IMG/VR virus record: IMGVR_UViG_3300009372_003836
Span: 1 to 56,831 of that record
From: a virus
DNA length: 56,831 bases
Reading direction: 5' to 3' (one strand)
The notes beneath the pieces are model-generated. The model saw only the letters and a program-made list of their open reading frames with translations. It was not told the DNA's origin and ran no database searches. Of the stretch, positions 8,463-56,831 are shown piece after piece; positions within the stretch are counted from its first letter, which is position 1, and every line of letters starts with the position of its first letter. The position numbers and the translations under genes are program-made.

Positions 8463-9193
8463 TAGATTCCCTTTTCTTCTATTTCTAGTATTGCTTTGAC
8501 GTGTGCATATGCCACTTTATCTTTATACTCATTTGTCATCATTTGTTCACATTGGATTCGATTGGTGAAGAATCCGTTCTCAGTTAAGATTGCGGGCATG
8601 GTTGTCTTTTTCAATACAAAGAACTTGGCTTTCTTGACTCCTCGATCTTTCCACCCAGTTTGCTCAACAATGTGTTTTTGGAATATCACGGCCAAAGAAT
8701 GACCGGTTGGTGATCCGGGACAGCAATAAGTTTCAACCCCGGATGCTGATGACCAATTGTCACTTGCTGCGTTTGCATGCACTGAGATGTATAGTTTTGC
8801 AAGCCCTAGGTCATCAGCTGCAGTTGATGCAGCAACACGCATAGGCAATGACATATCATCGTCCGACTTTACTAAGTTGAAATATGCGACACCATGTGAA
8901 TCCAGCTGTGCTGTAATTCTTCTTACAACATCTCGGTTAAATGCATATTCAAATAGTTGGCGGTCGTCGTTCATTTTGGGCGAGCGCTTTCCGGGCGTTG
9001 TGTGGCCGTGACCGTTATCCAGGATCCACAGATATCGCTGCCTGTGTTCTTTCTTTTTCACTTCAATCTCCTTGACAGGTTCTACAACACTATCTAGGCT
9101 CTTTATCTTAAGTTTGACTGCTTCTTTCCTTGGGACCAGCGTTTGTGCGATGACCTCTAGAAAGCTAGTGATTATTGAGAATATGTGTTCCAC
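8462..9193 (-). CDS. N-acetylmuramoyl-L-alanine amidase (endolysin)
   Basis: A 243-residue Amidase_3-type zinc enzyme that cuts the bond between muramic acid and L-alanine in peptidoglycan. Zinc-site motifs: DNGHGHTTPGKRSP (first His), YISVHANAA (second His) and PAILTENGFFTN (catalytic Glu). I chose the GTG at 9193, which has GGGAG nine bases upstream; longer frames only shadow the IMP dehydrogenase gene. A hydrophobic N terminus ([18 protein letters not shown]) might be a signal-anchor. Likely the main lysis enzyme. Confidence 0.88.
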   Translation of the reverse strand: MEHIFSIITSFLEVIAQTLVPRKEAVKLKIKSLDSVVEPVKEIEVKKKEHRQRYLWILDNGHGHTTPGKRSPKMNDDRQLFEYAFNRDVVRRITAQLDSHGVAYFNLVKSDDDMSLPMRVAASTAADDLGLAKLYISVHANAASDNWSSASGVETYCCPGSPTGHSLAVIFQKHIVEQTGWKDRGVKKAKFFVLKKTTMPAILTENGFFTNRIQCEQMMTNEYKDKVAYAHVKAILEIEEKGI

Positions 9194-9776
9194 TTTCGTT
9201 TGCTCCCGATGATGTTTGTCGGATAAACTGTGAACGTCGTTGCAGCTCTGTAATTGTTCGAGCACCTGAATATGACATTCCACTCCGCAAACCTTGTGTT
9301 AGGTTACTAACTATGTCCCTCACTGAGCCTTTATGTGCCACTGTGGTTGAAATCCCCTCAAGACTACTTGCTCTTCCTCGCCAATTGAACTGTGCTTCGG
9401 GGCTGGCCATACCCCTATACGTCTTTCTCTTCTCGCCGTCGACGTAGACAATATCTCCGGGAGCTTCGTCGGTCCCTGCGAGAAGTGAACCTAGCATTAC
9501 AGCGTCAGCGCCTGCAGCAATAGCTTTTACGATATCTCCGGAGTTTTTAATGCCGCCATCGGCAATGATTGCTACGTTTCGATCTGTATGATAGCAGTCA
9601 AAGATTGTTTGCAGGCCTGGGACGCCATGGCCGGTCTGGATGCGAGTTGAGCAGATTGAATTGTGCACTACAATGCCGTCAACATTATACGAGTGATCAT
9701 CCTCAACTGTTAAGTCATGAACTTTTCCCTCATAGTGCTTCATTCTCTTCTTAAACTCAACTAATTCGAACTTCAT
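9165..9776 (-). CDS. guaB: IMP dehydrogenase C-terminal half with C-intein
   Basis: A 203-residue product. Residues 1-39 are a C-terminal split-intein fragment ([19 protein letters not shown], ending VVHN). The extein then begins SICSTR, the active-site loop with the catalytic Cys of IMP dehydrogenase. [12 protein letters not shown] and TYRGMAS follow, which favour IMP dehydrogenase over GMP reductase. After trans-splicing with the N half (10818-11660) the product would be about 342 residues with no CBS domain. IMP dehydrogenase oxidises IMP to XMP, the first step towards GTP. The intein pair closely resembles, from memory, the split intein called IMPDH-1. Confidence 0.92.
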
Positions 9777-10767
9777 TTATAAACCCTTCAATTTTTTCTA
9801 TTTCATCAATAAAATCAACGCTTCTATTTTTTGGCTCTTTTACTCGATACAAAGGATATCCACTTCTTTTTGCAATGTCATCCTTAATATCGTCTCTTGA
9901 TTTTGAATTATTATGCCAGTAATAACCATCATATTCTATCAAATATTTTCCAAAAACTATAAAATCATAAAACTTTCTCTCTATCTTAAATTGCCTACTT
10001 ATGTTTCTCCTGCCAAACTTAGCACATAACATTTCATATAATCGTCGCTCAGGGGAAGATCCGGCTCGACCCATCTTTTTCTTATGCACAGTTTTTTCAA
10101 ATTCATCTTCATCAACTATATTAAAAAAGAACAAATATTTTTTAATCGATCTTATGTCTATGTTGCCCGCGAGTCTTTTAAGATCACTCTGGTTAAACTC
10201 GAGTGTGGTCGAATACGTGTGCCACAGGCCCTCCAGCTTGCTTTCAGTCAAACCTAGACGTCGCAGTGTTCTTTCAAGAACTAAGACTTTATTTTCTTCT
10301 CTAAATTTTTTGTTTCCATCAATTATCTTCTGTTTTGTAGCATCCGAGTGTATTTTGCCGTAAAATGGATTTTTGTCTCCGGATAGCTTTCCTGATAGAG
10401 CATTTCTTATCTTCTCCCTGGTTTCTTTAGAGTGCTTCTTGCCATAAAATGAGTTATTCTTGCCAGCCTTTGCTAGCCCTTTGCATTTGTTTGAACAGTA
10501 TTTGGTGCCGCGGCCCAATATTTCTTCTTTGCATTCTTGACAGAGCTTTTTCTTATATCCATTTTTAACTCTCGTCCCTTTAGTTCTGCATTCTTTAGAG
10601 CAGTATAGCCGACTAGAACCCTGGCAAGCAAAGTCTTCTTTGCAATAATTGCACTTTTTTATATCATCAACTTTTCTATTTTTCTCATAGCAAATCGAAT
10701 CGCAAAATGTTTTTTTGCTCGATATTGATTCTCCGCACTCTCTACAATATTTTTCTTTACTACACAT
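9757..10767 (-). CDS. Homing endonuclease, Vsr-like, between the IMP dehydrogenase halves
   Basis: A 336-residue protein. I use the ATG at 10767 because AGGGAG lies 9 bases upstream; a TTG at 10800 lacks one. The N half carries four Cys-rich zinc-finger-like repeats (CxxC pairs), then NUMOD3-like segments (GKKHSKETREKI and FYGKIHSDATKQKI). The C-terminal nuclease has a Vsr-like core, FYDFIVFGKYLIEYDGYYWH, followed by YRVKEP. This matches the endonuclease family described with fractured, split-intein genes. It overlaps the C half by 20 bases and probably spreads the split-intein allele. Confidence 0.85.
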   Translation of the reverse strand: MCSKEKYCRECGESISSKKTFCDSICYEKNRKVDDIKKCNYCKEDFACQGSSRLYCSKECRTKGTRVKNGYKKKLCQECKEEILGRGTKYCSNKCKGLAKAGKNNSFYGKKHSKETREKIRNALSGKLSGDKNPFYGKIHSDATKQKIIDGNKKFREENKVLVLERTLRRLGLTESKLEGLWHTYSTTLEFNQSDLKRLAGNIDIRSIKKYLFFFNIVDEDEFEKTVHKKKMGRAGSSPERRLYEMLCAKFGRRNISRQFKIERKFYDFIVFGKYLIEYDGYYWHNNSKSRDDIKDDIAKRSGYPLYRVKEPKNRSVDFIDEIEKIEGFINEVRIS

Positions 10768-10788
10768 TGAATATGGCTCCCTATGTAT

Positions 10789-10796
10789 ATAAATAT
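10789..10796 (-). promoter_or_regulatory. ATATTTAT box upstream of homing endonuclease
   Basis: Sense ATATTTAT, 22 bases before the ATG at 10767, between the IMP dehydrogenase N-half stop and the endonuclease. Suggests the endonuclease has its own, perhaps late, promoter. Confidence 0.4.
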
Positions 10797-10817
10797 ACAA
10801 GTAGATACATTTTGATC

Positions 10818-11660
10818 CTATTCCAATGTTTTTATTAAAAGATGTTGCTGTTCGTCTAGATCATATGCTGCGATCCACTTTGCATACTCGTGAATATTGT
10901 TTTCATTGATAAGTTCGACATCTTCTCTGTTTACGACATAAAATTCATGATTTGATGTACATTCAATATCGTTAATCACAGTTATTGCTTCACTTCTATC
11001 AAAAGCTAATGTATCAATAACTGGCTTTAGATTTCCTGTATGTGTATAGACTCTATCACCGACTTTAACATTTTCAATATTCTTTAAACCGTTTTCAGTT
11101 CGAACTTTTGTACCCGGAACAAAGCAGCCTCCGCCGATGTTGCAGCGTACTGCGTTAGCCCCCCAATCAGCGAGGTCGTTAATTCCCTCGAGGGTGGCAA
11201 CATTACCTGCAATCAAGCAAAAATCCTCACCCAGAGTAGCACGAAGCTCCTCTAGCACCTCTTTTACGAGAATGTGGTGACCATGTGCCACATCAATGCA
11301 AAGAGCAGAGGCTCCAGCATTAACAAGAAGGTCTGCTCGGTGAAAATAGTCATCTGTTACTCCAATCGCTGCGGCAATAGGTGCCTCATGCTCTGATAAT
11401 TGTATTGCTTTTATTACTTGCTGTGCTTGTTCCTCTGGCGAATTATACCGGTGGATGACGCCGAGGCCACCCATAAGACCGATTGCTGCAGCCATCTCAG
11501 CTTCAGTCACCGTGTCCATGCATGATGCAATAATGGGTAGCTTGAGATTGACTCCGGAGCCGAGAGTGACTGATGTGTCACATTCTGATCGGGATTTAAT
11601 GTCTGAGTATTGGGGGACGAGTAGAACATCTTCGTAGGCAAGAGTCTCTTGGATTTTCAC
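10818..11660 (-). CDS. guaB: IMP dehydrogenase N-terminal half with N-intein
   Basis: A 280-residue product. Residues 1-178 are the first half of the TIM barrel of IMP dehydrogenase (EDVLLVPQYSDI at the N terminus, MGGLGVIHRY, then GNVATLEG and NIGGG). Residue 179 is the Cys that opens the N-intein (CFVPGTKVRTENG). The fragment runs 102 residues, includes the block-B-like CTSNHEF, and ends at a stop. The break falls just before the active-site loop. Starts at GTG after an AGGAG, with a TATAAT box 25 bases further upstream. Confidence 0.92.
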   Translation of the reverse strand: MKIQETLAYEDVLLVPQYSDIKSRSECDTSVTLGSGVNLKLPIIASCMDTVTEAEMAAAIGLMGGLGVIHRYNSPEEQAQQVIKAIQLSEHEAPIAAAIGVTDDYFHRADLLVNAGASALCIDVAHGHHILVKEVLEELRATLGEDFCLIAGNVATLEGINDLADWGANAVRCNIGGGCFVPGTKVRTENGLKNIENVKVGDRVYTHTGNLKPVIDTLAFDRSEAITVINDIECTSNHEFYVVNREDVELINENNIHEYAKWIAAYDLDEQQHLLIKTLE

Positions 11661-15029: not shown

Positions 15030-15992
15030 TTATTCCTTATCTGATTCGTTGAATCTTTTTATTAGTTCTTCTTTTGATATCGAGCAATCTTTTCCCTTTG
15101 ATATATTTTCTCTTGCCGGGATGAATTCAAGATTGCATATATTTCCAATTATTTCTGAATCTATATCTTGTAAAAAACCTTCCCGCTTTGAAAACATGTG
15201 ATCAAGCTGGTAGTCGTCTTCACCTTTACCTCTATTTTTATTAGAGTTTTCTAGCAAGTGAATGGGTTGTTGGTTTGTGATCTTACTTACTTCTCTTTTG
15301 TAGTTTTCAAACTCTGGCAGTTGTGCAATGTAGTCGCTTCTTGATATTCCAAATTTTGTTTTATAAAATTTTTCAATTATCTCGTCAGACTGTAGTGAAA
15401 ACTCTACACCATATCTTTTCACAAGCGTTTCTTTGCATTTTTCTCTTACCCTGTTATTTGATAGCGGGTTATCTACACCAAACCTCTCCCTACATGTTTT
15501 CTTATATTTTTCTTGTATTTTTTTACTCATGTGCGGATGAGTTGCTCCGTGGTTCTTTATGCTAGTCATAACCTTCTTATCTTGAACTTCTTTTGATTTT
15601 GACGGATTATCAACACCAAGATTCTTAATATATGTTTTAACCCTCTTGTCTAAGAATTCCTGCGATTGCATCAAGTGCTTTACACCATACTTTTTTAATC
15701 TAGTGTTCTCTATTTTCTCTTTAGTTTCTTTGAGTGACGCAGGATTTTTTACTCCATACTTTTTTAAATTTGTATCTTCTATCTGTCGTCTTAAATGACC
15801 AGAATTTCTTAAAGATTCACCGAAACAAAACTTAGAACAAAAGTGATTATTTCTTTTAATCTTCTTTTTTATTGAATTTGAAGATTGAAATTCTTCACTG
15901 CATATATCACAACTAAATTTAGCAACCAGCTTCTTTCTTGGGTTTTTTTGTTTTCCATCTGCCGGAACTATGTAAAATGTTTCAACTAACAT
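15030..15992 (-). CDS. HNH homing endonuclease
   Basis: A 320-residue free-standing endonuclease. The N terminus has a Cys-rich finger (CDICSEEF, then FCSKFCFG). At least five tandem repeats of the type KKYGVKNPASLKE follow (residues about 75-200), likely DNA-contacting helices. The C terminus has an HNH-type core, YQLDHMFS, with GNICNLEFIPARENISKGK. It lies between two genes of the secretion-like cluster, separated by only 3 and 15 bases, and so looks like an insertion into an operon. Confidence 0.85.
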   Translation of the reverse strand: MLVETFYIVPADGKQKNPRKKLVAKFSCDICSEEFQSSNSIKKKIKRNNHFCSKFCFGESLRNSGHLRRQIEDTNLKKYGVKNPASLKETKEKIENTRLKKYGVKHLMQSQEFLDKRVKTYIKNLGVDNPSKSKEVQDKKVMTSIKNHGATHPHMSKKIQEKYKKTCRERFGVDNPLSNNRVREKCKETLVKRYGVEFSLQSDEIIEKFYKTKFGISRSDYIAQLPEFENYKREVSKITNQQPIHLLENSNKNRGKGEDDYQLDHMFSKREGFLQDIDSEIIGNICNLEFIPARENISKGKDCSISKEELIKRFNESDKE

Positions 15993-21289: not shown

Positions 21290-21473
21290 CTATTACCTCG
21301 TAACCATCTGGGTATATACTTATCTTTTCACCATTAACAAGAATCTTATCCAGTGGATACCCACTATTGTCAACGCCCTTATTCACTATCAATACTCCTA
21401 TTTTTCCTAGATGAGTATCATCAACTGTTGATACTTTTATAATTTTTACCAAGTCACCAACTTTAATCAACAA
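21282..21473 (-). CDS. Small beta-barrel protein, KOW/SH3-like
   Basis: A 63-residue protein with the look of an SH3-like barrel (KVGDLVKIIKVSTVDD, then GKIGVLIV and a Pro-Asp-Gly turn). Starts at TTG, 6 bases after AAGGA. Overlaps the polymerase C-half stop and the kinase start by 11 and 8 bases. Function unknown. Confidence 0.7.
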   Translation of the reverse strand: MLIKVGDLVKIIKVSTVDDTHLGKIGVLIVNKGVDNSGYPLDKILVNGEKISIYPDGYEVIDD

Positions 21474-24081
21474 GAGGTATCCTTCTCATTTTCCATGCTG
21501 CAGTAGATGCTCCCCAATTCGGATCGACGTCAACTTCCATCAACCAATAAGAGAATGAAGGGGGTTCATAATAAACCTTCTGCCCTCTTTCTTCGCCCCA
21601 ATCAAAGAACTTACCCCAAACCCTGAGCCAGCAATTTCGGTTTTGCTCATCGATCATTCTGAGACGATAGAAATCTTTTCCCTTTTTCGTCTTCTTCTTT
21701 TGAACCTCGGCGATGCAACCCCATGCCACAGCCTTTTGGCCGCCCTCAATTTCACATACTGACGGCATATCAGTCCTCGTGATTCTATCCATTACTTCAG
21801 ACGGAAATACAAGCTCGTTATTGATTGCTGACGTGATCTCTTGATATAGCCGAATCTTTTCATCTCTTGCCCAGTCTTCGATATCTTCATAATCCTTGAT
21901 TGCTTCTTTGAGATCGAAATATTGATCAAGCCTATCTAAGATTTTATCTCTTTTTACAGTGTTCTCTTCTAGGCGGGTGAAGCATCTGTCGACTTGCAGC
22001 TGTCGTCGAGGCTGATTGTGCTCGTATACCCTAAGCTCAGATGAAAGATTGTCAATATAGTTCCAATCCATGACATTTGAATCTTCAACAACTGCCTTCA
22101 TTTTTAATGCAGTGTCTTCATTCTTGTATTTTTCGAATACCTTGATAATCTTTTTGACCTCCTCATAATTTTTTTCAGCGAGGACAGGAAGCTTATCCAA
22201 CCACTTTTGTTTTCCATCATTTGCTTTTTTGATTTTATCGTAATTGTCCACAATCAAGTGATAAAGCTGTCGGTGATTTTCAATATCTCCGCTTTCAAGC
22301 TCGTCAAGTGATGAGAATGCCTCAATTTGACATAGCGCTCCGAAGGTTGTCTTATTTGCCTTTGAGAATCGCCATTCACCGCGCTTATTAAAGAACAGAT
22401 CTTTGACTGACGCATAGGGTCTATGCTTAATCAGTTCTGCCATCGCCGTCTTTCCCAAACCTTTGATGGAGGTTAGCGGCGGAATGAATGCGTTCTTTTC
22501 ATAGTTAAATTCCCACTCAATGCCCGAGTAGTTGATGTCTGACTGTTCGAACTTGAAGTCAAGAACCTTTGCCTCGCGGATTGCTTTTGACAGATTTTTC
22601 GGGCTTCCATTTTCAGATTGAAGAACAGCTGCAATCCACTCATTGGGGTGATAAGTAAAGAGCCATGCTGCGTAGTAACTGTCAATTGCGTAAGAGATAG
22701 CATGTGATTTATTAAACCCATACAGGCTGAAGAACTCGATCTTGTCGAAGAGTGCATGTGTGATTTTCGGATCTAGATCATGTAATCTCTCAGCACCTTC
22801 AACAAACTTCTTGCGCAATGCATCACGTTCTGAACCTTTTTTGCCGATTGTGTCAAGCGACTTCTTCACCAGCGTCTTACGCATTTTATCAGATTCGCCG
22901 GGCGTAAATCCTGCTAGTTCCACTGCCAAAGTCATGAACTGCTCTTGAAACGTGATGAATCCACAAGTTGCACCGAGGATCTTCTCAATCACTGGGTGGT
23001 CATACACGATATTGTCTCGGTCGTTCTTTGCTGCGACATAATCAATATGAACATTTGCCTTCAGTGGGCCCGGTCGATAAATTGCTGTGATTGCACCGAG
23101 CTCCTCAATGTTTTCAGGCTTAGCTTGCATACAGAAGTTTCGAGCTCCTTGCGCAGTAAACTGAAAGATGCCTGGGGCAAAGTTCTTTTGGTGATATACA
23201 TTCTCCCATACCCTTGGATCATCTTGCTTAATAGTACGACAATTCAAGTTTTTATCAAAGAATTCCTTGATATCCATAAACGATGGATTCTTTTGCCCGT
23301 CTTTAATGAGGATTCTTCGGATACAATTTTCCACATCTTTCATCAGTGTGAGTCCGAGGAAATCAAACTTAATGAACCCATTATCTTCGAGGTTTCTGAA
23401 GTTCATTCCCTCAGTCCACGGAGTTTGCAAGTCACCTCGAACTGAGATTAGTGGGATTGTCTTCTCAAGCTCACGTGCATCTGCAATAAGAACACCGCCT
23501 GCATGACGGCCAATTGATTTTTGCTCCATAAACAACGTGCTCACATGATCTTCTACATGCGGATATTTCGTCATGAAAGCAAGATATTTCTCTGAATACT
23601 TCATGCAATCCTCGTGGGTCAAAACGAATACCGACTTCTCAGTATTAGCATCTCGAGCATGAGGCTCTACGTCAGCTTGTAATGGTCCTGTGACGATATT
23701 TACCTCTTGAAAAGGAACATCATAGAACTTAGCAACATCCTTGACAATTGACTTTAGCTTGAGTGTATTAAAGTTGCTTACGGGAATAACAGCATCATTA
23801 CCAAACAGCTCTCGGGCGGCATCAATGAGTGCATCTCGATCTCCTGCATCCGAGTCGATATCCGGCCACGATGTCCTGTGTCTGCCGAGGAATCGACTCC
23901 AAAGTAGACCGTATGGAATCGGGTCAATCTGCGTGATTCCTAGCAAGTAATTGACTAAACTGCCGGCGCCTGAATTGTGAACTGCTTTTCCTTCAACGTT
24001 ATACGTGTGTGAATTTTCAACACATAGGTCAATTACTTTTCCATCATACGGAACAAGCTTTTTAGAGATTAATTTTGTCAT
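21463..24081 (-). CDS. dnaE: DNA polymerase III alpha, C-terminal half with C-intein
   Basis: An 872-residue product. Residues 1-36 are a C-intein (DGKVIDLCVENSHTYNVEGK, ending VHN). The extein starts SGAGSLVNYLLGI, the conserved DnaE GRGSxAGSLV motif. Two catalytic carboxylates are in WPDIDSDAGDRD (D-x-D). Family landmarks QEQFM and GFNKSHA follow, then an OB-fold-like C-terminal part. It needs trans-splicing with the N half (25071-26636) to form a replicative polymerase of the bacterial type, unusual for a T4-like phage. It overlaps the endonuclease gene by 20 bases. Confidence 0.93.
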   Translation of the reverse strand: MTKLISKKLVPYDGKVIDLCVENSHTYNVEGKAVHNSGAGSLVNYLLGITQIDPIPYGLLWSRFLGRHRTSWPDIDSDAGDRDALIDAARELFGNDAVIPVSNFNTLKLKSIVKDVAKFYDVPFQEVNIVTGPLQADVEPHARDANTEKSVFVLTHEDCMKYSEKYLAFMTKYPHVEDHVSTLFMEQKSIGRHAGGVLIADARELEKTIPLISVRGDLQTPWTEGMNFRNLEDNGFIKFDFLGLTLMKDVENCIRRILIKDGQKNPSFMDIKEFFDKNLNCRTIKQDDPRVWENVYHQKNFAPGIFQFTAQGARNFCMQAKPENIEELGAITAIYRPGPLKANVHIDYVAAKNDRDNIVYDHPVIEKILGATCGFITFQEQFMTLAVELAGFTPGESDKMRKTLVKKSLDTIGKKGSERDALRKKFVEGAERLHDLDPKITHALFDKIEFFSLYGFNKSHAISYAIDSYYAAWLFTYHPNEWIAAVLQSENGSPKNLSKAIREAKVLDFKFEQSDINYSGIEWEFNYEKNAFIPPLTSIKGLGKTAMAELIKHRPYASVKDLFFNKRGEWRFSKANKTTFGALCQIEAFSSLDELESGDIENHRQLYHLIVDNYDKIKKANDGKQKWLDKLPVLAEKNYEEVKKIIKVFEKYKNEDTALKMKAVVEDSNVMDWNYIDNLSSELRVYEHNQPRRQLQVDRCFTRLEENTVKRDKILDRLDQYFDLKEAIKDYEDIEDWARDEKIRLYQEITSAINNELVFPSEVMDRITRTDMPSVCEIEGGQKAVAWGCIAEVQKKKTKKGKDFYRLRMIDEQNRNCWLRVWGKFFDWGEERGQKVYYEPPSFSYWLMEVDVDPNWGASTAAWKMRRIPLVD

Positions 24082-25009
24082 GCACTTTCCTTGCCTTCTC
24101 GTAGAATTCTTTCGGTATGTCTTTCTTTACAACAATTCTTTGCTCATATTTTCTGTCTTTGCACCACTCTATTAAAGCAGATTGCTTTCTCTTTATCTCG
24201 TCTTCTCTTTGATACATAAATCCCTTTAAGGTCCCCTTGACTTCAACTATTAGATTTCCATCAACAATAAAATCAGGATAATAGCTTCTGTTTCCATCCC
24301 ATTTTATTCCCTCTAGATTATAACGCCCAATATTTCTTTTTACACTAACCATCCACAGAATAAAAGATAGTTCAATTAAGCTTTGATACCTCATTCCGCT
24401 GTAGCTACCATGATATTGTTGCTTTGAGTTATTCATCACCTTGTTTGCATACTCCGGATCTTTCCATTTTTCTCGAAGTGAGCTTGATACTCTTTTTGCA
24501 TACTCCGGATCTTTCCACAGTGTTAAGCCGATCTGGCGATATTTTTCTTTCATTCCGGGCTGTGCATGTCGTCGAAGTTGTGAAACTCGTTGCTTCTCTT
24601 TTGCCTCTGGTAAATTTTGCGAAACAAGCTGTGCACTTCTATTCTTTTCTCGCCACACTTTTGACGAAGTCACAATCTTAGCATAGTGATCTGGGCATAT
24701 CGGGTCGTTGCTATACGTTCGTCCTCTAAGCTTGATCGCTAACATGCTGTATTTGCAATTACACGTCTTGCATCTAAAATAAACTCGTGCCTTTCCGGGT
24801 GTCTTGTTATCAAACTCACCCCATGAATACCCAAAATTATAATCAAATTCAAGATCATATATCTGGTGCTTTATCGCCATTCTTGTCAGGCCAGTTTCTT
24901 TCTTAATGACTTCGAGCATCTCTTGACTAATAAACATCTGGTCATTGCCTGCTAGAAGTTTGTCAATATATTTTTTGTTTTCTTTTGAAAGTGTTTTTCG
25001 AGTTTTCAT
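24062..25009 (-). CDS. PD-(D/E)XK homing endonuclease between dnaE halves
   Basis: About 315 residues. I use the ATG at 25009, 7 bases after GAGAGG; a TTG at 25024 is less likely. The middle has a Cys pair and tandem helical repeats (WKDPEYAKRV and WKDPEYANKV). The C terminus has the nuclease core YYPDFIV, then LIVEVKG, a PD-(D/E)XK signature rather than the Vsr-like core of the other two split-intein endonucleases. It lies between the two dnaE halves and overlaps the C half. It likely homes the intein-bearing allele. Confidence 0.85.
   Translation of the reverse strand: MKTRKTLSKENKKYIDKLLAGNDQMFISQEMLEVIKKETGLTRMAIKHQIYDLEFDYNFGYSWGEFDNKTPGKARVYFRCKTCNCKYSMLAIKLRGRTYSNDPICPDHYAKIVTSSKVWREKNRSAQLVSQNLPEAKEKQRVSQLRRHAQPGMKEKYRQIGLTLWKDPEYAKRVSSSLREKWKDPEYANKVMNNSKQQYHGSYSGMRYQSLIELSFILWMVSVKRNIGRYNLEGIKWDGNRSYYPDFIVDGNLIVEVKGTLKGFMYQREDEIKRKQSALIEWCKDRKYEQRIVVKKDIPKEFYEKARKVHDKINL
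24444..24517. repeat. Pair of 23-base direct repeats inside an endonuclease gene
   Basis: The segment beginning TTTGCATACTCCGGATC occurs at 24444-24466 and again at 24495-24517. It encodes the repeated WKDPEYA motif of the dnaE endonuclease. Confidence 0.8.
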
Positions 25010-25063
25010 ATTTTGCCCTCTCAATATAAGTATATCGGGCCGGGTCGAATAACTAAACTATTT

Positions 25064-25071
25064 ATAAATAT
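25064..25071 (-). promoter_or_regulatory. ATATTTAT box upstream of dnaE homing endonuclease
   Basis: Sense ATATTTAT overlapping the dnaE N-half stop region, 55 bases before the ATG at 25009. Further upstream than other copies of the element, so weaker. Confidence 0.3.
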
Positions 25072-26636
25072 CAAACATCAACAATAACATCTTCGTCGCT
25101 TAAGTTTTGAGCCTCAACCCATCCTCGATTTGACGTCAAGAACTTATGATCTACTGTGCACTTAATTACGATACCATCATCAAATTCAAGCTCAACAATA
25201 TCTTCCTCGATATCATATACAAACTTCTTTATAACCTCTTGACTTTCTCCGTATGCGTCAATTACGTGATCACCGGGAGAAATTGCTTCAATTGTGTTCA
25301 TTAATCCGTCGGACATTTTTACACGTGTATCAGGTAAAAAGCAGCCGCGGCCAGGCCCAAAGAGAGTTTTCTTCTCGGCCAAGTGGAAAACATCATACAT
25401 TGTCAGGAAGTAGTTTTCAAATCCGAGGAACTTAATGTCAGCTAGCTCTTCTTTGATCCTCGCAACATACTCAGGTTTTTCGGCCATATCATGACTGATC
25501 ATTGCTGCTTTTACAAGCTTTCCAAGCTGCTGAAAGGGTGTATCTTTGGGTGCCTCAGGATAGCATGCATGTCCCTTTTGAGGCACAGCATAGTTTGGTA
25601 GCTTAGCCTTAGAGTCGACCCATACATCTTCATAACGATCCCAGACAATATCGTGTGTCCTCTCTACACTATCTCTAATAAGCTCTTCCCTGCCTTTGTA
25701 AAAGTCATAGGCATGCCAGTCGCGGTCGAACTCATCCCACACCTCTGAGGCATTTTTTGGATAAAGCTCACACTTTAGCTCGTCGAACTTCGGCAAAGGT
25801 GACGGATCATTTCCCATCCAGCCTAGCTTCTTATATAGCTCCCGGGCTTCCCATAATTCTTTGCCGGGATAGTGGGAGTCACATGTGGTGATAAGCCCGA
25901 TTCCCGTCTGATCGTGTAGTTCGAGAAGCGCACGGTTAGATAGATGCTGGGCTGGGAGCTTATTGAACTGCAGCTCATAGAAGAAGTTGTCTTGTCCTAC
26001 TGCATCGACAAACCGATCTGTTATGTTTCCGAGCACACCCATCAGATTCTTCATCTTTGACGGGTCATCTAGCAAATCAGGCTTAAGATCCATGAAATCA
26101 ACGCCCGGGAATTGCTGGAATGTTCGTCCTGCGGTAATTCCGCCAATGCATGCTGAGCTTACAGTTAGACCTTCGCTGTATTGCTTGAGAAGCTTGAAGT
26201 CAATTCGTGGGAACCGATAGAAGCCGTCGGTGTATCCTCTCTTTACTAGCGTGAAAAGATTGGCTAGGCCTGCTGCGTTTCTTGCAGTGATTACGAGGTG
26301 ATAGCGGCGCATCCATTCGGGTTTCCCCTTACCTCCGCCTTTTGACTCCTCCTCATTCTCAATGGTGTGTCCTTCAGATTTGAGATCATCTTCATTGTCA
26401 GAGCTTAGATCGGTTGTTGCAAGCTTCTCAGCTTTCTTTGCATCTCTCTCAGCCTTGACTTTTTCTTTGTGACCCAGGTAGTTTTGCTTCCAAACATCGA
26501 GATCCTCGACGAAGTAGAACTCAACACCGTATACCTGCCGATACTTGCGGCCGGCCTTCTTCATTTTGTCGAAGTGCTTGTGAGCATGTGCTAAGCCAGA
26601 GCCGTGACCGTGGTCAGTTAGTGCCCATGCATCCAT
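25071..26636 (-). CDS. dnaE: DNA polymerase III alpha, N-terminal half with N-intein
   Basis: A 521-residue product from the ATG at 26636. The PHP domain is visible (WALTDHGHGSGLAHAHKHF, then VYGVEFY), followed by the start of the palm region up to FGPGRG. The N-intein begins at Cys 432 (CFLPDTRVKMSDG), contains the block-B-like VDHKFLTSNRGW, and is 90 residues long. The PHP domain's first segment lies upstream but is cut off by a TAG (see 26697-26786), so this ATG may be a restart or the gene may be damaged. The break is at GPGRG|SGAGS, unlike the cyanobacterial DnaE split site. Confidence 0.92.
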   Translation of the reverse strand: MDAWALTDHGHGSGLAHAHKHFDKMKKAGRKYRQVYGVEFYFVEDLDVWKQNYLGHKEKVKAERDAKKAEKLATTDLSSDNEDDLKSEGHTIENEEESKGGGKGKPEWMRRYHLVITARNAAGLANLFTLVKRGYTDGFYRFPRIDFKLLKQYSEGLTVSSACIGGITAGRTFQQFPGVDFMDLKPDLLDDPSKMKNLMGVLGNITDRFVDAVGQDNFFYELQFNKLPAQHLSNRALLELHDQTGIGLITTCDSHYPGKELWEARELYKKLGWMGNDPSPLPKFDELKCELYPKNASEVWDEFDRDWHAYDFYKGREELIRDSVERTHDIVWDRYEDVWVDSKAKLPNYAVPQKGHACYPEAPKDTPFQQLGKLVKAAMISHDMAEKPEYVARIKEELADIKFLGFENYFLTMYDVFHLAEKKTLFGPGRGCFLPDTRVKMSDGLMNTIEAISPGDHVIDAYGESQEVIKKFVYDIEEDIVELEFDDGIVIKCTVDHKFLTSNRGWVEAQNLSDEDVIVDV

Positions 26637-53832: not shown

Positions 53833-54277
53833 AGCCCTTGTCTCCTCGATGAGATGGATGAACAGTATCAACTTCTAGGAACTGTGTTTTGTTACTACTA
53901 GTCTTCGCATGCACATCATAGATTACCAGCTGTGCTATTCGATCGCCCTTTTCAAACCGGTAATCTTTGTCACCGCCATTATAGAGCATTACAGATATCT
54001 CGCCTCGATATCCTGGGTCAATGATACCACCCACTGGAAAAACGGCGTGTCTAAATGCTAAACCTGATCTTCCTTCTACTTTTATAATAACAGACTTATG
54101 AATATCAGTCGTGAATGGTGATTCTGCTAAGACAACACCGGTAGAAACTGACGTTACTTTTCCGGCAGGAATATTTCCTGACTCGACTGATGTTAGATCC
54201 CAGCCTACATCACCTATCTTTTGAGATGGTAGCTTTGCATCGGGATGTGTTAGCTTTACTTTAACGAACATGCTCAT
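53813..54277 (-). CDS. dut: dUTPase (trimeric)
   Basis: A 154-residue trimeric dUTPase. Conserved motifs in order: DVGWDL, GRSGLA, GGIIDPGYRGE, KGDRIAQLVI and RGDKGFGSSG. It hydrolyses dUTP to dUMP, keeping uracil out of DNA and feeding ThyX. Overlaps RecA C half (ATGA). Confidence 0.95.
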   Translation of the reverse strand: MSMFVKVKLTHPDAKLPSQKIGDVGWDLTSVESGNIPAGKVTSVSTGVVLAESPFTTDIHKSVIIKVEGRSGLAFRHAVFPVGGIIDPGYRGEISVMLYNGGDKDYRFEKGDRIAQLVIYDVHAKTSSNKTQFLEVDTVHPSHRGDKGFGSSGR

Positions 54278-55149
54278 TTTAACTCTGCCTCCGCGAGGTC
54301 CATTGCTACTGCTCGGACCTCTTCATAAGAATCTGCATTAATATCTAGATTGCCGGAAAAATTCTTAATAAGAGTCTTCTCTAGCATCGTCTCAATATAA
54401 GGCAAATACTCATCACTGTTTAACAAATCTTCCATTCCACTTTTGGTGAACTTCTTTTCTACTATAAGTTCACCGGTTTTTGAATCAATAACTGATAGTG
54501 TCTTCCAAGCTCCTGCACCTTCGACAGAGTATGTCTTTCCTTCGAACTCTACGTCGTCAGACGATCTAAGAAGATCTGTGATTTGCTCATGCTCTTTGAC
54601 ACCGACACCAAAGTGAATCTCAAAATGACAAGTTCTGAATGGGTGCGCCACTTTGTTCTTGATTGTCTTCGCCGAGACATTAATCCCTATGATATCGCCC
54701 TCTTTGTTCTTGATTTGAGAGCCGGCGCCGAGTTTAATTCGAACTGAGGAGTGAAATGGTATTGCGGCGCCGCCGGGAGTCGTATTGTGATTTACCTGGC
54801 CATTTGCTATGTAATTTTCTGTCTCTTCAACAGATGTATCTACGACACACATTGGCTCTTCAATAATCATAGATTCTGGGTGCTCAGACAGAGGTATGTA
54901 CTCATTACCGAACAAAACTCTGTGATTGCTAGTTCCTCTTAGCTCATCAATCCTGCAGTAGGAGTCGACTTGATCTTTCACGATAAACGAATTCATTGGC
55001 CGAAAACCAGCAGTTCCATCATTTAGCAGAGTTTCAATCTCTATGCCCAGGCTAGATATGTCTAGGTTTGTCGGTGTTTTCATATCATTTAGATTTAAAA
55101 ACTTTTCAGCGAATTCGAAAAACGTCAATTCTTCTTCTACAATAGGCAT
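54274..55149 (-). CDS. RecA-like recombinase C-terminal half with long C-intein
   Basis: A 291-residue product. Residues 1-122 are the greater part of an intein, including RGTSNHRVLF (block B) and the C-terminal VDTSVEETENYIANGQVNHN. The extein then starts TTPGGAAIPFHSSVRIKLG, a conserved RecA loop and strand. Because the N-intein is only 20 residues, this intein is split near its start. Trans-splicing with 56193-56831 would rebuild RecA. Starts at ATG after GAGAGGG. Confidence 0.92.
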   Translation of the reverse strand: MPIVEEELTFFEFAEKFLNLNDMKTPTNLDISSLGIEIETLLNDGTAGFRPMNSFIVKDQVDSYCRIDELRGTSNHRVLFGNEYIPLSEHPESMIIEEPMCVVDTSVEETENYIANGQVNHNTTPGGAAIPFHSSVRIKLGAGSQIKNKEGDIIGINVSAKTIKNKVAHPFRTCHFEIHFGVGVKEHEQITDLLRSSDDVEFEGKTYSVEGAGAWKTLSVIDSKTGELIVEKKFTKSGMEDLLNSDEYLPYIETMLEKTLIKNFSGNLDINADSYEEVRAVAMDLAEAELK

Positions 55150-56147
55150 AAAACCCTCTCTTTTAATATTGTTTCTATATCAGAACTATTGATTTCATTT
55201 TCCCACAAAATTACAATATGTTCAAATTTTTCACTTAACAAACCTAGTCTATTTTTATCAAACGCTCTCTGAGCTTTTGCAGTTTTTGCAGCATATAAGA
55301 CGAAATCATCTTCGTACTTCGATGGGTTGGCATGCCAAAAGTCGCCGAAACATTCAATTACTATACTACTATTTACTATAAAATCTGGCTGGACAAATGA
55401 ATTTTCAAACTCAATTACTGGTTCATATTCCCAGTTTATATTTTTTTCGTCTAACAAGTTAGCAATTTTAAATTCTATTGAATTCATTTTCTTGCCTTTA
55501 TAAGAAAGCTTTTTTGACCAATTTGATCTCATTTTATTTCTTTTCTCATTAGATGCGTTTTCCCACATCTTTTTAGCAGCTTTACTTATTTTTTCAATTC
55601 TTTCAGGATTTTGCATTGCTTCATCATATTTTTTCTTGTTAGCAGGATCTTCAAGGTGCTTTTTAAATGATGCAATTCTTCTTTTTTTTACTTTGGGTGA
55701 CTGTGTTGCTTTTATATACTTTTCACGATTATTTTTCCACAACTCTTTATGAATCTTTGAATGCAATTCCCTGTCATAGCTATCTGACATGTTTTTCCTG
55801 GCAGCTTCAGACGACATAGCGATGGAATGGTTTTTGACAAACTTTTTTCTCGTCCTGAGTTTCCACAGATTTGATATCTCATATTCCTTCAATGAAATAA
55901 CGTTGTTTTCAAATAGGAAGTCAATTAAATAGTTTTTATTTGCTAGCTTCTTTCTAAATTTCCAAACATTGTTAGCCAGATTTTTATCATCAATATGATG
56001 AATATAATAACCCAGCTCTACTCCACTAAATGGATAACCAGATTCTCTCATTGCTGGCTTTTCTTTTTTAAACTTAGCCTTTAAAGATATTTTAGTTATT
56101 GGTTTATTATCTTTTATTTTAAAATCAAAATCAAAATAATCTATCAT
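55137..56147 (-). CDS. Homing endonuclease, Vsr-like, between recA halves
   Basis: A 336-residue protein. Lys-rich helical repeats (LEDPANKKKYDEAMQNPERI) follow an N-terminal domain. The nuclease core PDFIVNSSIVIECFGDFWHA and the later ILWENEIN match the Vsr-like (EDxHD) fold. It lies in the gap of the fractured recA and overlaps the C half by 13 bases. It likely homes the split-intein allele. Confidence 0.85.
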   Translation of the reverse strand: MIDYFDFDFKIKDNKPITKISLKAKFKKEKPAMRESGYPFSGVELGYYIHHIDDKNLANNVWKFRKKLANKNYLIDFLFENNVISLKEYEISNLWKLRTRKKFVKNHSIAMSSEAARKNMSDSYDRELHSKIHKELWKNNREKYIKATQSPKVKKRRIASFKKHLEDPANKKKYDEAMQNPERIEKISKAAKKMWENASNEKRNKMRSNWSKKLSYKGKKMNSIEFKIANLLDEKNINWEYEPVIEFENSFVQPDFIVNSSIVIECFGDFWHANPSKYEDDFVLYAAKTAKAQRAFDKNRLGLLSEKFEHIVILWENEINSSDIETILKERVLCLL

Positions 56148-56192
56148 AATATTCCACCTATAGTTTTAACGAGGTTTTAGTTCCATATATAA

Positions 56193-56831
56193 CTATAGGC
56201 CGAAATTAGAGTTATCATACCTGACTTTGATTTTAGTCGTAAACGGGTCGACGCACATGGGATCCCCGTACATAACACCAATCTTTGTTCGTGTCTGATT
56301 TAGACAGATGAACAGTGTATTCGTGCTACCAAAGACCTGGGTGATCTTTCTCATGCCCTTTGAGATCGTTCTTGCTTGAAGACCGATAGAGTTTTGATCA
56401 TAATCGCCTGTTAGCTCTGCCCTGGGAGAAGATGCTGCCACAGAATCCCAAATAATCGTAATAGGAATATCTTTATTGAGGCCGCGGGCTTTCATGATCG
56501 TTGACTCTGCGACTTCAAACACTTCCTCAGTGCAGGCAGTCTCGATAAACACAAACCGCTTTGATACATCAACACCGAGGAGTGCCAGATTCTCTACTGA
56601 TGTACCGTTCTCTGTGTCAATATAGACAACGATGCCACCCATTGATTGCGTGTTTCGCGCAATCTGCAAAGCGATATGTGACTTACCGATTGATGGTGGC
56701 CCAAAGATCTCGACAATTCTGCCACAGGGTAGCCCGCCGTTTTTTCGATTAGATACCAGTAGATCGAGCTGCCTAATCCCAGTGCCGCCCCCCGCTTTCA
56801 GGGGGGTCGGTGACTCATCTACACTGAGATT
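56193..56831 (-). CDS. RecA-like recombinase N-terminal half with short N-intein (5' end outside window)
   Basis: At least 212 residues; the true start lies beyond the window edge. Walker A GPPSIGKSHIA, YIDTENG, IIWDSVAASSP and FICLNQTRTKIGVMYGDPM are RecA hallmarks. At residue M, a Cys opens the N-intein (CVDPFTTKIKVRYDNSNFGL), only 20 residues before TAG. The break is at GDPM|TTPGG, the DNA-binding loop region. In-frame translation of the window edge shows TGIRQLDLLVSNRKNGGLPC, so it is not a truncated gene. Confidence 0.92.
   Translation of the reverse strand, partial: NLSVDESPTPLKAGGGTGIRQLDLLVSNRKNGGLPCGRIVEIFGPPSIGKSHIALQIARNTQSMGGIVVYIDTENGTSVENLALLGVDVSKRFVFIETACTEEVFEVAESTIMKARGLNKDIPITIIWDSVAASSPRAELTGDYDQNSIGLQARTISKGMRKITQVFGSTNTLFICLNQTRTKIGVMYGDPMCVDPFTTKIKVRYDNSNFGL

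What the first reader, a model, noticed from the sequence alone, without database searches (positions are those of the whole stretch)
54274..56831. RecA split intein divided almost at its N terminus (20 + 122 residues) with an endonuclease between the halves
Seen: the N part ends 20 residues after the splice Cys; the C part has 122 intein residues, including block B (GTSNH), normally on the N side. The two together read as one intein and the exteins join as GDPM|TTPGG, which matches RecA. Most natural split inteins break near residue 90-100; only a few are known to break near residue 25. A RecA-hosted one with such a short N piece is unusual and useful for protein chemistry.
Basis: partly seen in the sequence, partly recalled or inferred. 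Interest (0 to 1): 0.88.

Follow-up and report, generated by a model that had tools for sequence, protein, structure and literature searches.

The report
Phage RecA gene with early-split intein
A phage's DNA-repair gene (recA) is encoded as two separate proteins that very probably stitch themselves together through a self-splicing intein cut unusually close to its start, with a DNA-cutting "homing" gene between the halves; the kind is known, but its relatives show the intein switching between whole and split forms.

Summary
Confirmed. On the minus strand the recA/uvsX gene is fractured into three genes: a RecA N half ending GDPM|CVDPFTTKIKVRYDNSNFGL* (20 intein residues), a 336-aa endonuclease, and a C half of 122 intein residues ending VNHN followed by TTPGG and the rest of RecA. 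Splice residues are complete (C1, TxxH, VVD, HN, Thr+1). The joined exteins align without a gap to E. coli RecA, and most related phages have the site uninterrupted. The split lies in the first beta-hairpin of the intein fold (S1), as in VidaL (16 aa) and PolB16 (15 aa). The endonuclease is of the EDxHD/Vsr family. It is not a one-off: 45 viral loci carry this intein in recA. Five distinct members are contiguous; the rest are split in the same hairpin, with an intact endonuclease, a decayed one, or none. In one pair (L094 split, L097 contiguous) the intein DNA is 97-100% identical while the flanks are mostly 63-87%: recent homing with a split/whole switch. Several relatives also carry a group I intron 15 nt downstream, and two kinds have recA in three apparently trans-spliced pieces. 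Splicing is inferred, not shown. New member of a known kind, useful for asking how inteins become split.

The parts
56256..56831 (-). RecA/UvsX N-extein (runs off the contig end; complete in L005:3202-3894)
   Evidence: PF00154 E 6e-37
56193..56255 (-). Intein N part, 20 aa CVDPFTTKIKVRYDNSNFGL plus stop codon
   Evidence: homologous to contiguous inteins L095, L097, L099
55137..56147 (-). Free-standing EDxHD (Vsr-like) endonuclease, 336 aa
   Evidence: phrog_945; PDB 3r3p E 8.8e-7 and Vsr; invariant E225, D255, H272, D297; fold match Vsr
54784..55149 (-). Intein C part, 122 aa, MPIVEEELTFFEF...YIANGQVNHN
   Evidence: TIGR01443 above cut-off; 45 homologous viral loci
54922..54936 (-). Block B motif GTSNH inside the C part
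54274..54783 (-). RecA/UvsX C-extein TTPGGAAIPFHSS..., 169 aa plus stop
   Evidence: PF00154 E 5.7e-13; gapless join to E. coli RecA
55153..55162 (-). Likely ribosome-binding site of the C half (AGAGAGG-type), lying inside the endonuclease's last codons
   Evidence: read from sequence; the same layout is kept in the decayed endonuclease of L092

Best explanation
A phage recA/uvsX gene interrupted by a class 1 intein that is naturally split in the turn of its first beta-hairpin (S1), with a free-standing EDxHD homing endonuclease gene in the gap. RecA-N with its 20-aa intein tail and the 122-aa intein joined to RecA-C are translated separately, associate, and trans-splice (Cys1 acyl shift, transfer to Thr+1, Asn cyclisation) to give one 400-aa RecA. 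The intein sits in DNA-binding loop L2 (E. coli E207|T208 equivalent, from general knowledge), so RecA activity should depend on splicing. The endonuclease probably cuts intein-free recA alleles of co-infecting phages, so that recombination copies the split intein and endonuclease together. Shown here: gene anatomy, splice residues, fold position of the split (on a contiguous homologue), empty sites, selection on both halves, endonuclease family, recent horizontal movement of a sister intein. Inferred: splicing, cutting, dependence of RecA on splicing.
For: Anatomy. Splice residues. TIGR01443 above cut-off. Joined exteins equal RecA. 72 of the 80 closest phage recA loci are uninterrupted at the site. 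Contiguous homologues read through the break, e.g. L095 CVDPFTTRVKIRYEHITEEITLFEFAERF. L095 model (pLDDT 89.9) is a HINT fold whose best PDB matches are inteins (E down to 4.5e-6), with the split in the turn between strands 16-21 and 24-29. Selection on both halves. Endonuclease matches 3r3p and Vsr. L094/L097 intein DNA 97-100% identical against mostly 63-87% in the flanks. Same arrangement in three other contigs.
Against: No splicing or cleavage was measured. The joined window intein has no sequence match in the PDB and Pfam Intein_splicing stays below its cut-off (best E 0.0008 in the family). The fold was predicted for a contiguous homologue, not for the two window halves. The endonuclease model as a whole is modest (pTM 0.41) and its recognition site is unknown.
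Confidence: 0.9

Rival explanations
1. Dead element: the intein was split by the endonuclease gene and no longer splices; the phage uses a host or second recombinase.
For: No activity data; the record is incomplete at the recA end.
Against: All catalytic residues kept; purifying selection on both halves and on both exteins' frames; the split is kept in many separate lineages; no second RecA in the record.
Confidence: 0.05
2. RNA-level joining: the gap is a group I (or other) intron that carries the endonuclease ORF, so the intein would be contiguous after RNA splicing.
For: Relatives do carry group I introns with related endonucleases 15 nt downstream.
Against: No Rfam match to E<=5 in 54700-56400 nor an intron match in L094's gap; the N part ends in a stop after non-conserved residues and the C part has its own ATG and ribosome-binding site; other lineages are split with halves overlapping by 11-14 nt, leaving no room for an intron.
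Confidence: 0.02
3. The two RecA halves work as a non-covalent two-subunit protein and splicing is not needed.
For: Some phage enzymes are encoded as separate subunits.
Against: The intein residues, including Cys1, HN and Thr+1, are strictly kept and selected; the break falls inside a DNA-binding loop; empty sites in relatives are precise.
Confidence: 0.02
4. Assembly or sequencing artefact.
For: The window's last 50 bases contain four doubtful mismatches.
Against: Three other contigs carry the same arrangement at 99.5-99.9%, and an independent homologue L053 has it at 69% intein identity.
Confidence: 0.01

Closest known systems
Naturally split S1-type inteins: VidaL (IntN 16 aa) and PolB16 OarG (15 aa), PMC13014065, PMC10189870
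   Same: Class 1 intein on two polypeptides, split right after the first long beta-strand, IntN short enough for chemical synthesis; VidaL is cysteine-dependent like this one.
   Different: IntN 20 aa with a 122-aa IntC (PolB16: 15 + 168, Ser1/Ser+1); host is RecA; a full endonuclease gene lies in the gap; no sequence comparison with VidaL was possible.
AceL-TerL (25 aa), TerL CAT (30 aa) and GOS-TerL split inteins
   Same: Natural split inteins with a short N part.
   Different: AceL-TerL and GOS-TerL are split after the first helix (S2, PMC13014065), not in the first hairpin; host is terminase.
Fractured genes with EDxHD homing endonucleases (Dassa et al. 2009, cited in PMC13014065; text not held, content from my own knowledge)
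   Same: Split intein halves flanking a separate Vsr-like endonuclease gene in a phage DNA-metabolism gene; this phage also has an IMPDH and a DnaE example.
   Different: Those split at the canonical endonuclease site (about 100 + 35-40 aa); here the endonuclease gene sits at S1.
Mycobacterium RecA inteins
   Same: RecA host and HINT fold (3ifj, 2imz among the fold matches).
   Different: Contiguous inteins; no significant sequence match to the window intein.

Membership tests
Class 1 inteins (HINT) | Nucleophile at residue 1, block B TxxH, block F Asp, C-terminal HN, Cys/Ser/Thr at +1 | tested here: met
   C1, TSNH, VVD, NHN, Thr+1 in the window; TxxH or SxxH, Asp and HN in all 25 family sequences
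Class 1 inteins (HINT) | HINT fold | tested here: met
   Shown on the contiguous homologue L095 (pLDDT 89.9; top PDB matches inteins); the window halves themselves were not folded together
Class 1 inteins (HINT) | Ligation of the exteins | not testable with these tools
   Needs expression; only the gapless RecA junction was shown
Atypically split (S1) inteins | Two separate ORFs, IntN about 15-37 aa, split in the first hairpin turn | tested here: met
   20 + 122 aa in separate genes; split maps to the turn after strand 16-21 of the L095 model
VidaL intein | Sequence homology to VidaL | not tested
   VidaL sequence not found in the held papers read or searched
Fractured gene with EDxHD endonuclease | Separate endonuclease gene between intein halves, with the E-D-x-H-D motif and Vsr-like fold | tested here: met
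   E225, D255, H272, D297 invariant in 9 sequences; 3r3p E 8.8e-7; Vsr 1cw0 top fold match, E 0.004
Fractured gene with EDxHD endonuclease | Cuts the intein-free allele and homes | not testable with these tools
   Indirect only: L094/L097 intein near-identical inside diverged recA genes
Group I intron (RF00028) | Covariance-model match in the gap | tested here: not met
   No match to E<=5 in window 54700-56400

The most novel reading that the evidence does not exclude
The first beta-hairpin (S1) is a second recurrent landing site for homing endonuclease genes in inteins. At one recA site, phage inteins cycle between contiguous, split with endonuclease, split with a decayed endonuclease, and split without one, with the endonuclease's tail keeping the translation start of the C half. 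The same route leads on to recA in three trans-spliced pieces with a 7-residue middle extein (L120-L124).
Probability: 0.6. Interest if true: 0.68.

Novelty: new member of a known kind. Interest (0 to 1): 0.55.

Why it matters
Natural inteins with a very short N part are few and are valued for attaching synthetic peptides to proteins; this family supplies further natural sequences with IntN of 15-36 aa, all cysteine-started, plus matching contiguous versions. Sister pairs such as L094 (split) and L097 (whole), with almost identical intein DNA, make the open question of how split inteins arise and revert directly testable. The recA site is also a hotspot where split inteins and group I introns with related endonucleases sit 15 nt apart.

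Tried and rejected
tblastn of the C half against isolated phages gave essentially only the RecA part; an apparent intein-long match in Vibrio phage KF4 was rejected because that RecA is only 367 aa. Sequence search of the joined intein against the PDB gave nothing; a profile hit to 8fbf (E 0.23) is chance. A scan of bacterial and archaeal genomes gave only 23-25-residue matches in Diapherotrites MAGs, not followed up. The pattern-based endonuclease scan missed the L094 homologue, so its count of four loci is a lower bound. Rfam at gathering scores gave nothing for L031, L036, L053, L055 searched together; permissive scans of short stretches found group I introns in L055 (40.9 bits, below the 50-bit cut-off) and L053 (84.7 bits). 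Literature searches for a UvsX or RecA early-split intein found no paper in the held library. The fractured-genes paper of 2009 is not held.

Full report
WHAT IS THERE. The window is a virus record of 56,831 bases. On the minus strand a recA/uvsX gene is cut into three genes. The N ORF (56193-56831, open at the contig end; complete in L005:3202-3957, 251 aa) is RecA to ...KIGVMYGDPM, then CVDPFTTKIKVRYDNSNFGL and a stop. Next comes a 336-aa ORF (55137-56147). It overlaps by 13 nt the C ORF (54274-55149), which reads MPIVEEELTFFEFAEKF...YIANGQVNHN, then TTPGGAAIPFHSS and the rest of RecA.

IS IT REAL. The same three-gene stretch is in three other contigs at 99.5-99.9% identity. The two halves are the only RecA matches in the record and the only matches to the joined intein. 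Joined, the exteins give a 400-aa RecA that aligns to E. coli RecA without a gap across the junction (GDPM|TTPGG against GNPE|TTTGG). Of the 80 closest phage recA loci, 72 have the site uninterrupted, mostly as GDPT|TTPGG. TIGR01443, the intein C-terminal region, is above its cut-off. Against L053 the C half has pN 0.20 with pS 0.86, and the short N half pN 0.17 with saturated pS: both halves are under selection as protein.

THE INTEIN FAMILY. An alignment of five C halves (A1) found 45 viral loci; a second profile added almost nothing. The loci read all lie in recA, at the GDP|T(T/S)PGG-type site. Five distinct members are contiguous (L095, L097, L098, L099, L116); L095, for example, reads CVDPFTTRVKIRYEHITEEITLFEFAERF straight through the break. 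The others are split, with N parts of 15 (L092), 17 (L053), 18 (L104), 20 (window), 22 (L094), 24 (L130) and 28-36 residues. A tree of the C halves needs at least five changes between whole and split, four of them forced by well-supported branches. Block B ([TS]xxH), the block F Asp and HN are present in all 25 tree sequences, C1 wherever the N part was read, and +1 is Thr or Ser.

WHERE THE SPLIT FALLS. A structure predicted for the contiguous L095 intein with 15 family rows has mean pLDDT 89.9 and pTM 0.84. Its best PDB matches are inteins (TFIIB, RadA, Aes123 PolB1, Ssp DnaB, Mtu RecA). In that model the first strand (residues 16-21, RVKIRY) and the next (24-29) form a hairpin, and the window breaks in its turn. 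This is the S1 position, where VidaL and PolB16 are split; AceL-TerL and GOS-TerL are split later, at S2 (PMC13014065). The same paper gives 15-37 aa as the natural range of short N parts.

THE ENDONUCLEASE. A profile of nine relatives matches PDB 3r3p ('Mobile intron protein', E 8.8e-7; I-Bth0305I to my knowledge) and Vsr (1cw0, E 3e-4). Residues E225, D255, H272 and D297 are invariant, as the EDxHD name requires. Vsr is the best fold match (E 0.004), though the whole model is only moderate (pTM 0.41). L053 and L094 carry homologous genes at the same place (43-48% identity). In L092 only the parts matching residues 7-51 and 283-336 of that endonuclease remain, and the kept tail still holds the C half's likely ribosome-binding site. 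Most other split members have no endonuclease and overlapping or nearly abutting halves.

MOBILITY. L094 (split, endonuclease) and L097 (whole) have inteins 97-100% identical in DNA on both sides of the break, while the flanking recA DNA is mostly 63-87% identical. Homology stops at the endonuclease boundaries, where L097 has only a short linker of about 27 nt. The simplest reading is recent homing of the intein between two phages, with loss or gain of the endonuclease and a switch of form. The direction is not settled.

A HOTSPOT. Several split relatives have a group I intron 15 nt further on, directly after TTPGG: L053 84.7 bits, L126 79.5, L115 55.0, L111 54.0, and L055 at 40.9 bits, below the 50-bit gathering score but E 9.6e-9. 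Some of these introns carry endonucleases of the same superfamily. The window has no intron: nothing to E<=5 in 54700-56400.

HOW IT WORKS. Shown: anatomy, complete splice residues, fold site of the split (by homologue), empty sites, selection, endonuclease family, movement of a sister element. Inferred from the established chemistry of class 1 inteins: the halves associate and trans-splice through Cys1, Thr+1 and the C-terminal Asn, giving one RecA. The break falls in loop L2 (general knowledge), so unspliced halves should not work as RecA. Inferred for the endonuclease: cutting of the empty allele in co-infecting phages. Neither splicing nor cutting was tested.

KNOWN OR NEW. Each component is known: S1-split inteins, EDxHD fractured genes, RecA-hosted inteins. 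From memory, VidaL UvsX-2 is an early-split intein in a RecA-family gene; no held paper gave its sequence, so closeness to it is open. I therefore file the window as a new member of a known kind. The less expected result is the family around it: whole/split sister pairs, an endonuclease caught in decay, and recA genes with two early-split inteins.

Noticed in passing
L120:570-4881 (same in L121-L124): recA apparently in three polypeptides joined by two early-split inteins...NQIRIKIG|CVHPDTIVNVRKKQVLQT*, an endonuclease, a middle piece ...LSHN|TMYGDPT|CVDLDTEIEVEF...* with only 7 extein residues, then ...VNHN|TTPGG, an interruption carrying an endonuclease ORF (likely an intron; not above the Rfam gathering score) and MSIPFHSS.
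   Followed up: partly
L111:3500-6236: recA with a split intein at the Walker A motif (GLEQ|13-aa N part ... LNHN|SGKS), a second split intein at GDPW|TTSGG, and a group I intron; L106 has GLEQSGKS uninterrupted.
   Followed up: partly
window 9165-11660: IMP dehydrogenase fractured by a canonical split intein (N 10818-11660, endonuclease 9757-10800, C 9165-9776), joining [13 protein letters not shown].
   Followed up: partly
window 21463-26636: DNA polymerase III alpha (DnaE) fractured by a canonical split intein (N 25071-26636, endonuclease 24062-25024, C 21463-24081), joining GPGRG|SGAGSLVNYLLG; so this one phage carries three split inteins.
   Followed up: partly
L053:3307-3599, L126:3639-4054, L115:5331-6400, L111:5342-5758, L055:5118-6188: Group I introns directly after TTPGG/TTSGG-type codons, 15 nt from the intein site in recA.
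   Followed up: partly
L092:4655-5000: Endonuclease relic with about 230 codons deleted between the two intein halves; the remaining tail still carries the likely ribosome-binding site and a GTG start of the C half.
   Followed up: partly
window 15030-15992: Another homing endonuclease gene (phrog_3339, phrog_12131) between two ORFs of unknown function; no intein halves seen around it.
   Followed up: no
window 56780-56831: The contig end reads SPTPLKAGGGTG where L005 has SPTHVKAWVGTG; four mismatches lie in a hairpin-like stretch, probably sequencing or assembly error at the contig end.
   Followed up: partly
L130:4635-5966: A split member whose C half carries about 120 extra residues before the intein part (444-aa open frame), function unknown.
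   Followed up: no
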